Of a stretch of 52,711 nt of DNA, positions 3,096-52,711 are shown in pieces (the stretch's first letter is position 1; every line of letters starts with the position of its first letter). The position numbers were made by a program, and so were the translations under genes. Location of the stretch: positions 1 through 52,711 of the forward strand of contig JAFQSS010000004.1 in assembly GCA_017409455.1 (NCBI GenBank), written 5' to 3'. This stretch comes from Clostridia bacterium. GTDB taxonomy: Bacteria > Bacillota > Clostridia > TANB77 > CAG-508. The notes under the pieces are model-generated. The model was given only the letters and a program-made list of their open reading frames with translations, was not told the DNA's origin and made no database searches.

Positions 3096-3145
3096 AAATT
3101 GGGGACGGTCCTTTTTTTCGCGAAAAAAAGGACCGTCCCCAATTT
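3096..3145. repeat. family A palindrome, copy 1 (gatC-gatA gap)
   Basis: Perfect 50-bp palindrome centred on CGCG at 3120/3121; each arm carries TTGGGGACGGTCC followed by seven T. It lies inside an operon and has no downstream U run in the transcript direction, so it does not look like a normal terminator. The same sequence recurs at 31214-31269, 39097-39165 and 43939-43988. Confidence 0.9.
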
Positions 3146-13974: not shown

Positions 13975-13994
13975 TTTCTCTCCTTTCAAAAAAC

Positions 13995-14050
13995 CGTAAA
14001 AAAGGACCAGGTCCCAAATTACGCAAAAAGGGACCTGGTCCCTTTTTACG
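13995..14050. repeat. family B palindrome, copy 1
   Basis: GGGACC(A/T)GGTCCC-type arms at 13995-14015 and 14030-14050, flanked by A and T runs, with a 14-base centre AAATTACGCAAAAA. The methyltransferase stop codon (14046-14048) is inside the right arm, and the next gene starts 21 bases past the left arm. Nearly identical to 29861-29915. Confidence 0.88.
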
Positions 14051-14909
14051 TTTCCCATCTACCATAAATTCCACATGGTAACACTAATTTAGATTCCTCC
14101 ATAGGAAGTCCTATTTCCCCAGATGATACTTTTCCTTTATGATTTTTATTTACTGTTAAATTTAAAATATTTTCTAATACTTTACTTGAAATTCCTGTTG
14201 TATATGAATTTATCAAGAAAAATAATGGATTATCTGAAAGTACATTTGTACACAATTCTACTAAATCATAAATATTATTTTCAAATTGCCATACTTCCCC
14301 ATTTGCCCCTCTTCCATATGATGGTGGATCCATTATTATCGCATCATATTTATTTCCTCTACGAATTTCTCTATTTACAAATTTAACAACATCATCAATT
14401 ATATATCTTACTGGTCTATTTTCTAATCCTGATGAAACAATATTCTCTTTTGCCCATGTCACCATTCCTTTTGAACTGTCAACATGGCATACAGATGCTC
14501 CTGCAGCGCTACACGCTACTGTTGCTCCTCCTGTATATGCAAACAAATTCAATACTTTAATTTCTCTTTTTTCATTTCTAATTTTGTCCATCATCCAATC
14601 CCAGTTTACAGCTTGCTCTGGGAATAGTCCTGTATGTTTAAATCCCATTGGTTTAATATTAAATGTTAATTCTTTGTATTTTATCTGCCATTGTGAAGGC
14701 ATTTTTTTATTATATTCCCATGAACCTCCACCAGTTTTACTTCTATGATATGTTGCATTTATATTTTTCCATTTTTGTGGATATGACTTTTGTTTCCAAA
14801 TTATTTGTGGGTCTGGTCTTGATAAAACTACATCTCCCCATTGTTCTAACTTTTGACCATCGGCCATATCTAATATTTTATAATCCTTCCAATTATTTGC
14901 TATATTCAT
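14046..14909 (-). CDS. class I SAM-dependent methyltransferase (RlmI-like)
   Basis: 287 aa. The SAM-binding motif NLFAYTGGAT and the catalytic-loop DPPSYGRG are those of the RlmI/RlmK group that methylate 23S rRNA cytosine or guanine. The usual N-terminal PUA domain is absent; instead there is a ~100-residue region including HRSKTGGGSWEYNKKMP. Its last codons run into a family B palindrome. Next gene on the strand is a pseudouridine synthase, so both probably modify RNA. Exact target unknown. Confidence 0.85.
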   Translation of the reverse strand: MNIANNWKDYKILDMADGQKLEQWGDVVLSRPDPQIIWKQKSYPQKWKNINATYHRSKTGGGSWEYNKKMPSQWQIKYKELTFNIKPMGFKHTGLFPEQAVNWDWMMDKIRNEKREIKVLNLFAYTGGATVACSAAGASVCHVDSSKGMVTWAKENIVSSGLENRPVRYIIDDVVKFVNREIRRGNKYDAIIMDPPSYGRGANGEVWQFENNIYDLVELCTNVLSDNPLFFLINSYTTGISSKVLENILNLTVNKNHKGKVSSGEIGLPMEESKLVLPCGIYGRWET

Positions 14910-29860: not shown

Positions 29861-29915
29861 GTGAAAAAGGGACCAGGTCCCAAATTGCGCAAAAAGGGAC
29901 CTGGTCCCTTTTTAC
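29861..29915. repeat. family B palindrome, copy 2
   Basis: Arms at 29861-29881 and 29896-29915 (GGGACCAGGTCCC / GGGACCTGGTCCC) with a 14-base centre AAATTGCGCAAAAA. As in copy 1, the upstream gene's stop codon (29912-29914) lies in one arm and the next gene starts ~20 bases past the other. Confidence 0.88.
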
Positions 29916-31213: not shown

Positions 31214-31269
31214 GTTAATTTGGGGACGGTCCTTTTTTTCGCGAAAAAAAGGACCGTCCCCAAATTAAC
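31214..31269. repeat. family A palindrome, copy 2
   Basis: Perfect 56-bp palindrome centred at 31241/31242, with the same GGGGACGGTCC core and TTTTTTTCGCGAAAAAAA centre as at 3096. It lies between the HI0933-family gene and tRNA-His. Confidence 0.92.
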
Positions 31270-43938: not shown

Positions 43939-43988
43939 AATTTGGGGACGGTCCTTTTTTTCGCGAAAAAAAGGACCGTCCCCAATTT
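43939..43988. repeat. family A palindrome, copy 4
   Basis: GGGGACGGTCC plus seven T, CGCG centre at 43963/43964, and the complement. Stem 43942-43985 is perfect; the outer bases differ. Lies 14 bases upstream of the polC start. Confidence 0.9.
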
Positions 43989-45160: not shown

Positions 45161-46927
45161 ATGCCAATATCATTGACAAACAAAAAGAAATTAAGAAATA
45201 CTTTATTAGTTGCATTATTTATTATAATTTTATTAACAGCACGTGTTTCTTATATTCAATTTATATGGGGGCCTGAATTAAGTAATAAAGCAAGCGCTCA
45301 ACAATCCCAAAGTAGAAGCATTACAGCCAAAAGAGGAACTATTTATGATAGCACTGGAAAATACATTTTAGCTGTCAGCTCAAGTGTCGAATCTGTTAAT
45401 GTAAATCCAACAAATATTCCTGCAAAGGACAAAGAAAAAATTGCGCAAGCTCTTAGCAATATTTTTGAATTAGATTACGAAAAAGTTTTAAAAAAGGTTT
45501 CTAAACGTAGTTCAATTGAAACTATTATAAAAAAAGTAGATAAAGAAAAAAGTGATGAACTCCGAAATTGGATGACCGAAAATAATATTACTACTGGAAT
45601 AAATATAGATGAAGATTCTAAAAGATATTATCCTTATGGCGATTTAGCTGCTCAGGTTATTGGTTTCTGTGGTAGTGATAATCAAGGATTAGATGGTATT
45701 GAAGCAAAATATGATGATGAACTAAAAGGTACAAATGGAAAAATTCAAAGGCAAACTAATGCTACTGGCGAAAGTCTTGGTGGAGAAGAATATATTGCTG
45801 CAATTGATGGAAATAACTTAATTTTGACAATTGATATGACAATTCAATCTATTGTTGAAAAATATTTAGAAGAAGCTTGTATTGATAATGTTTGTACCGA
45901 TGGGGGAAGTATAATAGCTATGAATCCTCAAAATGGTGATATCCTTGCAATGGCAACATATCCAAGTTATGATTTAAATAGTCCTTATGAACCTTATACA
46001 GATGAACTAAAATCTGCATGGGATGGAATGGAACAAAAAGATAAAACAACTGCTTTGCAAGGTATGTGGAGAAATAAAGCAATTTCTGATACATATGAAC
46101 CTGGTTCTGTTTTTAAAACTGTAACTGCTTCAGCAGCGCTAGAAGAAGGAATCATAAAAGACATTGATGCTCCAGGACAATTTTGTTGTACTGGTTCTAT
46201 TCAAGTTGCTGGCGCTAGAATTAAATGTTGGAGATATTATAGACCTCATGGTTCTGAAAGTTTAAGAGAAGGTTTAATGAATTCATGTAATCCTGTTTTT
46301 ATAGGTTTAGGGCAGAAAATTGGTGTTACAAAATATTATGATTATCTAGAAAAATTTGGACTTTTTTCTAAAACAGGAATAAGACTGCCAGGAGAAGCAA
46401 ATAGTATTTTTGTAAAAGAAGAAAAAGCAGGACCTGTTGAATTAGCTACAATCAGTTTTGGTCAAAGATTCGAAATTACACCTTTGCAAATGGTTACAGC
46501 TGTATCTACTATAGCAAATCATGGCGTTTATATAAAACCTCGTATTGTTAAATGTATTCAAAATAGTGAGACAGGTGAAATAACAGAAATTCCAGTTGAA
46601 ACTGGTGAACAAGTAATTTCTAAAGAAAATGCTGAAAAAGTTTTGAGTATGATGAATAGTGTTGTTTCTGAAGGAACTGGAAAAAACGCACAAGTTGTTG
46701 GATATAATGTTGGAGGTAAAACAGGAACTTCTGAAGATGGTGTTAATACTGGTAAATATGTTACTTCTTTCTGTGGTGTTGCTGAAACTGATAATCCTGA
46801 AATTGTATTATTAATTACTTTATATAATCCTACAGGTGAAGGCGGTCACCAAGGAGGTGGTGTTGCTGCTCCTGTTGGTGGGAAAATCTTAAGTGAAGTT
46901 TTGCCTTATTTAGATAGTAAAACGTAA
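45161..46927 (+). CDS. class B penicillin-binding protein (SpoVD/FtsI-like)
   Basis: 588 aa. A membrane anchor (residues 14-34), dimerisation region (RGTIYDSTGKYIL), and a transpeptidase domain with S316xxK (EPGSVFK), S375-C-N (SxN) and K520-TGT. No C-terminal PASTA repeats, which SpoVD often has, so it may be a short SpoVD or the FtsI/Pbp2B of division. Start at 45161, after AATAGAGGTGATTTT. Sits beside ddl, and its stop codon overlaps the arm of a large palindrome. Confidence 0.9.
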   Translation: MPISLTNKKKLRNTLLVALFIIILLTARVSYIQFIWGPELSNKASAQQSQSRSITAKRGTIYDSTGKYILAVSSSVESVNVNPTNIPAKDKEKIAQALSNIFELDYEKVLKKVSKRSSIETIIKKVDKEKSDELRNWMTENNITTGINIDEDSKRYYPYGDLAAQVIGFCGSDNQGLDGIEAKYDDELKGTNGKIQRQTNATGESLGGEEYIAAIDGNNLILTIDMTIQSIVEKYLEEACIDNVCTDGGSIIAMNPQNGDILAMATYPSYDLNSPYEPYTDELKSAWDGMEQKDKTTALQGMWRNKAISDTYEPGSVFKTVTASAALEEGIIKDIDAPGQFCCTGSIQVAGARIKCWRYYRPHGSESLREGLMNSCNPVFIGLGQKIGVTKYYDYLEKFGLFSKTGIRLPGEANSIFVKEEKAGPVELATISFGQRFEITPLQMVTAVSTIANHGVYIKPRIVKCIQNSETGEITEIPVETGEQVISKENAEKVLSMMNSVVSEGTGKNAQVVGYNVGGKTGTSEDGVNTGKYVTSFCGVAETDNPEIVLLITLYNPTGEGGHQGGGVAAPVGGKILSEVLPYLDSKT

Positions 46928-47025
46928 AAAGGGAGAGGCTCTTACCACGGGGACGGAGATAATGGTAAAATTAATTTAAATTTTACCATTATCTCCGTCC
47001 CCGTGGTAAGAGCCTCTCCCTTTTT
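46926..47025. repeat. family C palindrome, 47-bp arms; also terminator
   Basis: Perfect 47-bp arms with a 6-base loop AATTTA. Arms contain GGGAGAGGCTCTTACCACGG and GGACGGAGATAATGG, with A and T runs at the outside. Lies exactly between the convergent PBP and mazF stop codons and should stop transcription both ways. Single copy in this window. Confidence 0.92.
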
Positions 47026-51702: not shown

Positions 51703-51750
51703 CAAAAAAAATTGCCGGTTCCCTAAGGTTTCAGCAATTTTTGTAATAAA
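51703..51750 (-). terminator. terminator after the 410-nt palindrome
   Basis: Minus strand: AAAAATTGCTG pairs with CGGCAATTTTT (one G-T pair), then further T before GTAATTTT. Placed at the end of the palindrome, ~100 bases upstream of minD. Confidence 0.75.
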
Positions 51751-51751
51751 T

Positions 51752-52163
51752 CAATTTAAGATGGTATGTACGCAATGTGCCAATAATAAAATGTCATTAC
51801 AGATTTTGGATAAGCCAACCTTCCCAAAGAAATTCTAATTTAATAAAATGAGCCTCTTTCACTCAGGCTCACCTAATTATTTATATATTTTGAATAAATA
51901 ACGAATGCGACCGTAATAGTGTTACAAATTCTTAAACAAAAATCATAAAGGGTCCTGTTTTCGGGTATAGTTGTGATTTTTGTTTTAGAATTTGTTAACG
52001 TTATGTAGGGTAGCCGAGGAATTTATGAAAAATATATAAATAATTAGGTGTCCGTGAACGTCCCTCATTTTATTAAATAAGAATTTCTAATGTTAAGGTT
52101 AGATACACAAAATCCTTCATTTATTTTTTTATTGGTACAGTGCGTACATACCATCTCAAATTG
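51752..52163 (-). ncRNA. candidate structured RNA: 410-nt imperfect palindrome
   Basis: Two ~198-nt arms (51752-51950 and ~51966-52163) pair with each other at roughly three of four positions. Fully matching blocks include GATGGTATGTACGC, ATTTAATAAAATGAG, CACCTAATTATTTATATATTTT and AAACAAAAATCA, separated by internal loops. No ORF with a ribosome site. On the minus strand an intrinsic terminator follows directly. It may be the 3' UTR of the amidase gene, a free RNA, or a fold-back mobile element. Confidence 0.6.
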
Positions 52164-52165
52164 AA

Positions 52166-52711
52166 TTACTCATAAAAATAGTCTACTATTCCATTATATA
52201 TTCCCCATGCCAATTTATTTTGATATTCATCTTCAAGTAAAAGTTTTTCCTCATCAGGATTTGACAAAAATCCACATTCAACAATTGTAATCGGAATCTC
52301 TACATGTTTAACAATATAAATATTATCTATAGATTTAGCAACCCTATTATTTTCTTTTTGAATTGCATCATTTAAGTTGTTTTGTATTGATACAGCTAGT
52401 TTTTGGCCTTCTGCACTTTTAGCATTATAAAAAGTTTGCCAACCATCATATTGTTGTTGTGGTATTTTATTCAAATGAATTGAAACAAAAATATCTGCTG
52501 AACTTTCATTCCCTATTTTTACTCTATTATGAATATCTGATATTTTTTTCTGTCTTAATGTCTTGCTGTCTATGTCATAAATAGAATTTTCATCAGAACG
52601 CGTAAGTATTACGGATGAACCACTTTGTTCTAATAAATTTTGTAATTTTAAAGCTATTTTTAAATTTGTTTCAGCTTCAGTTGTGCCTCTACTGCTTTCT
52701 GCCCCTTCATC
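52166..52711 (-). CDS. N-acetylmuramoyl-L-alanine amidase, CwlD-like (5' part outside window)
   Basis: Last 181 residues; the gene continues past the right edge. Amidase_3 fold: SSRGTTEAETNLKIALKLQN, SSVILTRSDENS, ADIFVSIHLNK (zinc His), and near the end VEIPITIVECGFLSNPDEE (catalytic Glu) and AWGIYNGI. The size and pattern suit CwlD, which cleaves peptide from muramic acid ahead of PdaA in cortex delta-lactam formation; a vegetative amidase is possible. Ends at TAA 52166, three bases before the large palindrome. Confidence 0.88.
   Translation of the reverse strand, partial: DEGAESSRGTTEAETNLKIALKLQNLLEQSGSSVILTRSDENSIYDIDSKTLRQKKISDIHNRVKIGNESSADIFVSIHLNKIPQQQYDGWQTFYNAKSAEGQKLAVSIQNNLNDAIQKENNRVAKSIDNIYIVKHVEIPITIVECGFLSNPDEEKLLLEDEYQNKLAWGIYNGIVDYFYE

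What the first reader, a model, noticed from the sequence alone, without database searches (positions are those of the whole stretch)
51703..52166. Candidate structured RNA or fold-back element between cwlD-like gene and minD
A 412-base near-palindrome with two ~198-nt arms. Perfect blocks of 12-22 bases alternate with internal loops of unlike sequence, a pattern more like a conserved RNA rod than a decaying repeat. A strong intrinsic terminator follows at 51703-51750 on the minus strand, so transcription from the amidase side would yield an RNA ending there. There is no credible ORF. I do not recognise it as any named RNA class. The alternative is a MITE-like fold-back element.
Basis: partly seen in the sequence, partly recalled or inferred. 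Interest (0 to 1): 0.72.

Follow-up and report, generated by a model that had tools for sequence, protein, structure and literature searches.

The report
Nested, self-mirroring mobile DNA hairpin
This stretch is one copy of a family of short, gene-less mobile DNA palindromes stacked inside one another, found almost only in one genus of gut bacteria; it is not a one-off RNA gene, but because both sides of its stems change together while its loops stay the same, it can pass for a conserved RNA.

Summary
The palindrome is real (fold z = -15) but not a single-locus RNA gene. Six other loci of the same genome carry parts of it, in different, locus-specific arms. Its Q motif occurs exactly in 35 of 129 genomes of the genus and 2 of 256 others of the order; reversed control 0 of 385. 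The rod is a stack of modules (outer arms, R, Q, M2, tip A) that recur elsewhere in part, in other combinations or inverted. Relatives with recognisable ends carry 8-bp target duplications (24 of 52 candidates; control 1.9%). A sister species gives element-free sites, two of them the loop of a native hairpin. Bubbles are conserved while stems change on both arms at once (53 double-changed cells, no single-sided standard pair; 119 versus 8). G-T and A-C stem mismatches are about equal in the largest set, so no RNA strand stands out. Best reading: nested MITE-like palindromes whose arms are kept alike by replication template switching, with bubbles conserved as recognition sequence. The mobilising enzyme and the source of this copy's outer arms were not found.

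The parts
52125..52168 (-). outer arm O1, 5' side on the minus strand; locus-specific
   Evidence: pairs with 51747-51788; no other strong match in 25 genomes incl. own
52081..52124 (-). module R, 5' strand
   Evidence: also in C27, C1, C24, C13 and, in part, C15 of the own genome
52052..52067 (-). module Q, 5' bubble strand (TGAGGGACGTTCACGG)
   Evidence: matching 5' half in 99 of 110 Q sites
51986..52018 (-). module M2, 5' bubble strand and start of the inner stem
   Evidence: alignment A1; own-genome copies
51935..51985 (-). tip A hairpin with conserved loop ACCCGAAAACAGGACCC
   Evidence: A1; inverted in C13
51902..51934 (-). module M2, 3' strand (inner stem and bubble)
   Evidence: A1
51849..51866 (-). 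module Q, 3' bubble strand (CTGAGTGAAAGAGGCTCA)
   Evidence: exact 17-base core in 37 of 385 genomes of the order
51795..51841 (-). module R, 3' strand
   Evidence: own-genome copies
51747..51788 (-). outer arm O1, 3' side
   Evidence: pairs with 52125-52168
51703..51750 (-). separate hairpin with T-run just outside the element, possible terminator
   Evidence: fold; not listed by the simple scan

Best explanation
The window copy belongs to a genus-specific family of gene-less, MITE-like palindromic elements built like Russian dolls: a stem, a bubble of two unlike conserved sequences, another stem, another bubble, and a conserved tip. Shown by the calls: copies are dispersed; modules are shared between copies whose outer arms are unrelated; relatives with recognisable ends carry 8-bp direct target duplications; a few sit in the loop of a native hairpin; shortened copies exist; the tip occurs inverted in one own-genome copy. 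Inferred: copies are moved in trans by an unidentified transposase; replication stalls at the hairpin and the nascent strand switches to the opposite arm, which keeps the arms complementary and can invert the centre; the bubbles escape being closed because they are needed, probably as recognition sequence for the mobilising protein on double-stranded or folded single-stranded DNA. The window copy is probably an old resident, since no end motif or duplication is visible.
For: Dispersed copies in own genome and in 14 of 36 genomes, own included. Q motif in 35 of 129 genomes of the genus, control 0 of 385 genomes of the order. 8-bp direct repeats at 24 of 52 candidate end pairs, control 1.9%. Element-free alleles in a sister species. 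Stems change on both sides without single-sided standard pairs (53 to 0 cells) and 119 to 8 in 11 copies of one genome, while bubbles are 92% alike between copies. G-T and A-C mismatches balanced in Q elements (53:49; 49:42). Template switching is stated to homogenise arms and invert spacers (PMC8604942, start of abstract in listing) and to create and repair stems (PMC8794818, abstract).
Against: The window copy shows no target duplication (8-mers TTTTATGA and AAAAATTG beside its arms) and none of the six own-genome copies with arms shares an end sequence with another. 25 of 52 candidates have neither direct nor inverted flanks; 9 of the 24 duplications come from one family in one genome. No match to three transposase families in G000, G017, G020 and G007. 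Orientation of Q relative to codirectional neighbours is uneven (14:31, p = 0.016) and tip A elements show 11 G-T to 35 A-C; either could hint at a strand-specific, perhaps RNA-level, constraint. Conserved bubbles are not explained by template switching itself.
Confidence: 0.68

Rival explanations
1. A structured non-coding RNA family: each copy is transcribed, the rod folds as RNA, the bubbles are RNA motifs bound by a protein or acting in cis, and dispersal is secondary.
For: Conserved loops with covarying stems; extreme fold z-score; uneven orientation relative to neighbouring genes (31:14); possible terminator beside the window copy.
Against: No single-sided (wobble) standard pairs in A1; balanced G-T/A-C mismatches in Q elements; tip inverted in C13 and M2-like sequence inverted relative to Q in 23 of 89 Q flank clusters by a fuzzy pattern; no Rfam family; no excess of promoter-like sites.
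Confidence: 0.15
2. A hairpin-loop-seeking element: insertion into loops of terminators and of other palindromes is the rule, so nesting is by targeting, as in SMR-A repeats of Haloquadratum.
For: L208 lies without duplication in the loop of a terminator-like hairpin that is intact in the sister; L073 in the loop of a small native hairpin; L077 less cleanly; L206 has inverted flanks.
Against: Only 3 of 52 candidates have inverted flanks (control 0.9%, so about 0.5 expected), against 24 with direct duplications. Sister genomes lack the long outer arms at the C13 site and, in a weak alignment, the C27 site, so those arms were not old hairpins shared by the sisters.
Confidence: 0.12
3. An assembly artefact (chimeric inverted join).
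For: The window is from a draft assembly of 34 contigs.
Against: The two arms differ at many places, and the same modules occur in many other assemblies.
Confidence: 0.01

Closest known systems
[quoted passage not shown]
   Same: Short, gene-less, many dispersed copies, inverted-repeat ends, 8-bp duplications in relatives
   Different: Concentric modules with conserved bubbles; whole length palindromic; arms of a copy change together; window copy has no visible duplication; no autonomous partner found
SMR-A small mobile repeats of Haloquadratum walsbyi (PMC3119063, sections 25 and 31 read)
   Same: About 110 bp, prominent inverted ends, insert within palindromes of other elements without duplication, mobiliser unknown; compare L208
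   Different: Archaeal; targets are PATEs and IS605-type elements; most of our duplicated copies do have 8-bp repeats; no bubble modules reported in the sections read
IS elements that land in REP palindromes, such as ISPsy8, IS1397, ISKpn1 (PMC1525189, passages)
   Same: Insertion at the symmetry axis of a hairpin (ISPsy8); compare L208 and L073
   Different: Those are full IS with transposase genes and 3-bp repeats for ISPsy8; ours carry no gene
BOX elements of pneumococcus (recalled, no call)
   Same: Modular, gene-less intergenic hairpin repeats
   Different: BOX modules lie in tandem; here they are concentric

Membership tests
MITE | Short and without a transposase gene | tested here: met
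   No ORF of 60 aa or more inside
MITE | Several dispersed copies | tested here: met
   Six further loci in own genome
MITE | Shared terminal inverted repeats | tested here: inconclusive
   Met in relatives (GTTACARTTCA ends); the own-genome copies have unrelated outer arms
MITE | Target-site duplication | tested here: inconclusive
   24 of 52 candidate relatives; not seen at the window copy (read)
MITE | Autonomous partner with the same ends | tested here: inconclusive
   PF00872, PF12762, PF03050 give nothing in G000, G017, G020, G007; hits in G083 and G233 were not checked for ends
Haloquadratum SMR-A | Inserts in palindromes of other elements | tested here: inconclusive
   Three cases with inverted flanks of 52; two are native hairpin loops in the sister
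Haloquadratum SMR-A | No target duplication | tested here: not met
   24 of 52 candidates have 8-bp direct repeats; so not filed here
Structured ncRNA family | Conserved structure with covariation | tested here: met
   A1: covariation 0.449, shuffles 0.142, 0 of 500 as high
Structured ncRNA family | Strand-specific pairing (G-U tolerated more than A-C) | tested here: not met
   49:42 in 80 Q elements, 6:6 in 6 tip B, 11:35 in 20 tip A elements
Structured ncRNA family | Match to a described family | tested here: not met
   No Rfam match at gathering score in 6 related loci; window matches all below gathering
Structured ncRNA family | Transcription | not testable with these tools
   No RNA-seq available

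The most novel reading that the evidence does not exclude
A class of mobile element whose conserved part is not its ends but a set of bubble modules read in folded single-stranded DNA, and whose arms are renewed by copying one arm from the other, so that each copy comes to have its own perfect, locus-specific arms of 30-110 bp.
Probability: 0.2. Interest if true: 0.78.

Novelty: new variant of a known kind. Interest (0 to 1): 0.5.

Why it matters
It is a warning case for RNA discovery: a dispersed DNA palindrome that gives textbook covariation, conserved internal loops and an extreme folding score without evidence of an RNA. Missing wobble steps and balanced G-T/A-C mismatches are a simple check for such cases. 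It also offers a natural system for watching arm correction and nested insertion in bacteria, and raises two open questions: what recognises the conserved bubbles, and where perfect locus-specific arms come from.

Tried and rejected
Rfam at a permissive threshold gave only microRNA look-alikes far below gathering scores. Plasmid, phage and E. coli collections gave no match with the element; viral contigs none for exact Q and tip A motifs. I hoped that the cwlD-minD region of sister species would show an empty site, but a minD-like motif was found within 1500 nt after cwlD in 0 of 25 relatives' loci, 3 of which end within about 600 nt. The idea that the outer arms O1-O6 are dispersed repeats was rejected. 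The idea that hairpin loops are the general target was reduced to a minority. An uneven orientation of Q (14 sense to 43 antisense) shrank to 14 to 31 after merging shared flanks. The A-C excess in tip A elements was not taken as evidence for an RNA of the other strand because many of the 20 copies are one family. The arm-extension script over-extends in AT-rich flanks; its end points were not used, but its alignments fed the mismatch count. Global alignments were partly misaligned and its output was cut; one search replaced it. No protein structure was predicted, since the element encodes none.

Literature: ten-word-type searches (open PMC library only; nine searches) did not list a description of this family. 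Most subscription papers are not held, so nothing wider is claimed.

Full report
What is there. Window 51738-52177 is an imperfect palindrome of about 440 bp. Its minus strand folds at -177.3 kcal/mol; 100 shuffles average -82.56 (sd 6.24), z = -15.2. A further hairpin with a T-run at 51703-51750 is predicted by folding; the simple scan, limited to loops of 8, lists no terminator, and promoter-like sites are as frequent as in shuffles.

It is not unique. A search of the window's own assembly (1.33 Mb, 34 contigs) finds parts of the same sequence at six other loci: C27 (89% over 347 bp), C31 (95% over 163 bp, centre only), C1 (no tip), C24 (outer modules round another centre), C13 (outer module round an inverted tip) and C15 (fragment). 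From outside to tip the window copy reads: locus-specific arms O1, module R, module Q, module M2, tip A. C27 has R-Q-M2-A, C1 R-Q-M2, C24 R-Q and another centre, C13 R and an inverted A, C31 M2-A (order read). The outer arms of the six copies that have them, window included, were joined into one query; in 25 genomes, own included, they match nothing strongly but their own two arms (best other E = 2.6e-4).

Where it occurs. With the element as query, 14 of 36 genomes match at E <= 0.001, own included. A 17-base Q core is in 37 of 385 genomes of the order: 35 of 129 of the same genus (counted by hand from the listing), one of another genus of the family, one of another family; the reversed control is in 0 of 385. 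Plasmid, phage, E. coli and viral collections gave nothing.

Mobility. In genome G017 nine copies of a 232-235-bp palindrome with GTTACAGTTCAG-type ends carry the M2-tip A core; all nine have direct repeats matching at 7 or 8 of 8 positions. In G020 and G007 a second family (GTAATTATTC ends) carries R-Q. Over all 52 candidate pairs of GTTACA-type ends, 24 have direct repeats of at least 7 of 8 (mismatched-flank control 1.9%), 3 have inverted flanks of at least 9 of 10 (control 0.9%), 25 neither; the list holds some false pairs, such as two left ends for one right end. Flanks of 16 G020 elements were searched in sister genome G007 and 11 sites compared. The element is absent in the sister at L207, L208, L204, L209, L073 and L075, with short unlike stretches at most of them, and less cleanly at L077; L205, L069 and L079 were not interpretable; at L068 the sister has another palindrome in the same place. 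L208 is telling: the sister has an intact terminator-like hairpin (9-bp stem, T-run) and the element lies in its loop with no duplication. L073 likewise lies in the loop of a small hairpin of the sister, with CATG on both sides. For own-genome copies, sister G006 lacks element and outer arms at the C13 site and, in a weak alignment, at the C27 site; G013 and G006 have other hairpins at the C1 site.

How the modules change. Short and long versions coexist in G020: 78 beside 250 bp, and 126 beside 258 bp. The 141-bp L221 of G017 has an exact 8-bp duplication and lacks the tip, as if lost between two ACAT repeats; C1 of the own genome lacks the tip near a CGTT repeat (read by eye). M2-like sequence lies in opposite orientation to Q in 23 of 89 Q flank clusters by a fuzzy pattern (read).

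Stems and loops. In A1 (14 M2-tip cores from six genomes) 12 of 23 pairs have double changes, 96.6% of cells pair, 53 cells have both sides changed and none has a standard pair with one side changed; covariation is 0.449 against 0.142 in shuffles (0 of 500 as high) and at most 0.074 when slid; one measure, further pair types, does not exceed shuffles (417 of 500 as high). In 11 copies from one assembly (title Lapin-004, so probably rabbit) outer stems are 98.5% alike within a copy and 64% between copies; the bubble is 40% alike within and 92% between; 119 cells changed alike in both arms, 8 in one arm (columns chosen by me). If one RNA strand were selected, G-U would be tolerated more than A-C on it. 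Counts are 53 to 49, 49 to 42 in 80 Q elements, 6 to 6 in 6 tip B elements and 11 to 35 in 20 tip A elements, the last not independent. Q is more often antisense to codirectional neighbours: 43 to 14 before and 31 to 14 after merging shared flanks (p = 0.016; five motifs were examined, three of them even), which I cannot explain fully.

Reading. Dispersal, duplications and element-free sites show mobile DNA. Simultaneous arm changes without wobble steps, and an inverted centre, are what replication template switching does to inverted repeats: PMC8604942 states homogenisation of arms and spacer inversion (start of abstract); PMC8794818 describes creation and repair of stems (abstract and start of introduction). 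That process should also close the bubbles; their conservation suggests that they are needed, probably for recognition by whatever moves the element. This step is inference. The mobiliser was not found: PF00872, PF12762 and PF03050 hit none of G000, G017, G020 and G007; PF00872 hits in G083 and G233 and a PF03050 hit in G083 were not checked for matching ends.

Known relatives. MITEs fit for size, copy number and, in relatives, duplications. SMR-A repeats of Haloquadratum walsbyi insert in palindromes of other elements, without duplication and by an unknown route (PMC3119063, passages and sections 25 and 31). ISPsy8 lands at the symmetry axis of a REP hairpin (PMC1525189, passages). In what I read, none has concentric modules with conserved bubbles and arms that change together. 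I therefore call it a new variant of a known kind. The origin of perfect locus-specific arms, up to 110 bp without a mismatch (L106), is open and is the most novel part.

Noticed in passing
window 3096-3145, 31214-31269, 43942-43985: Three near-identical spacer-less palindromes (TTGGGGACGGTCCTTTTTTTCG and its mirror), REP-like; similar GGGGACG motifs lie in outer arms of elements in other genomes.
   Followed up: partly
window 46926-47025: A hairpin with 47-bp perfect arms and a 6-nt loop, no module inside; could be an unfilled locus-specific hairpin.
   Followed up: no
window 13992-14053 and 29864-29913: Two hairpins sharing an AAAAAGGGACCAGGTCCC-type arm.
   Followed up: no
L015 1-140, L016 1-140, L017 2590-2722, L018 2320-2449: Four contig ends of the own assembly share one repeat of about 140 bp, so contigs break at an unresolved repeat next to different genes; it contains ATAAAAATAAATGAAGGA, like the edge of module R.
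   Followed up: no
L106 2359-2739 and L194 5870-6244: Two genomes have different long palindromes just after what looks like the same gene end (EGEMGVTVV, read by eye); in L106 the 110-bp arm includes the last codons.
   Followed up: no
L091/L155 and L123/L147: Apparently the same insertion in two species (same gene distances) with arms that differ at the same positions on both sides: material for timing arm correction.
   Followed up: no
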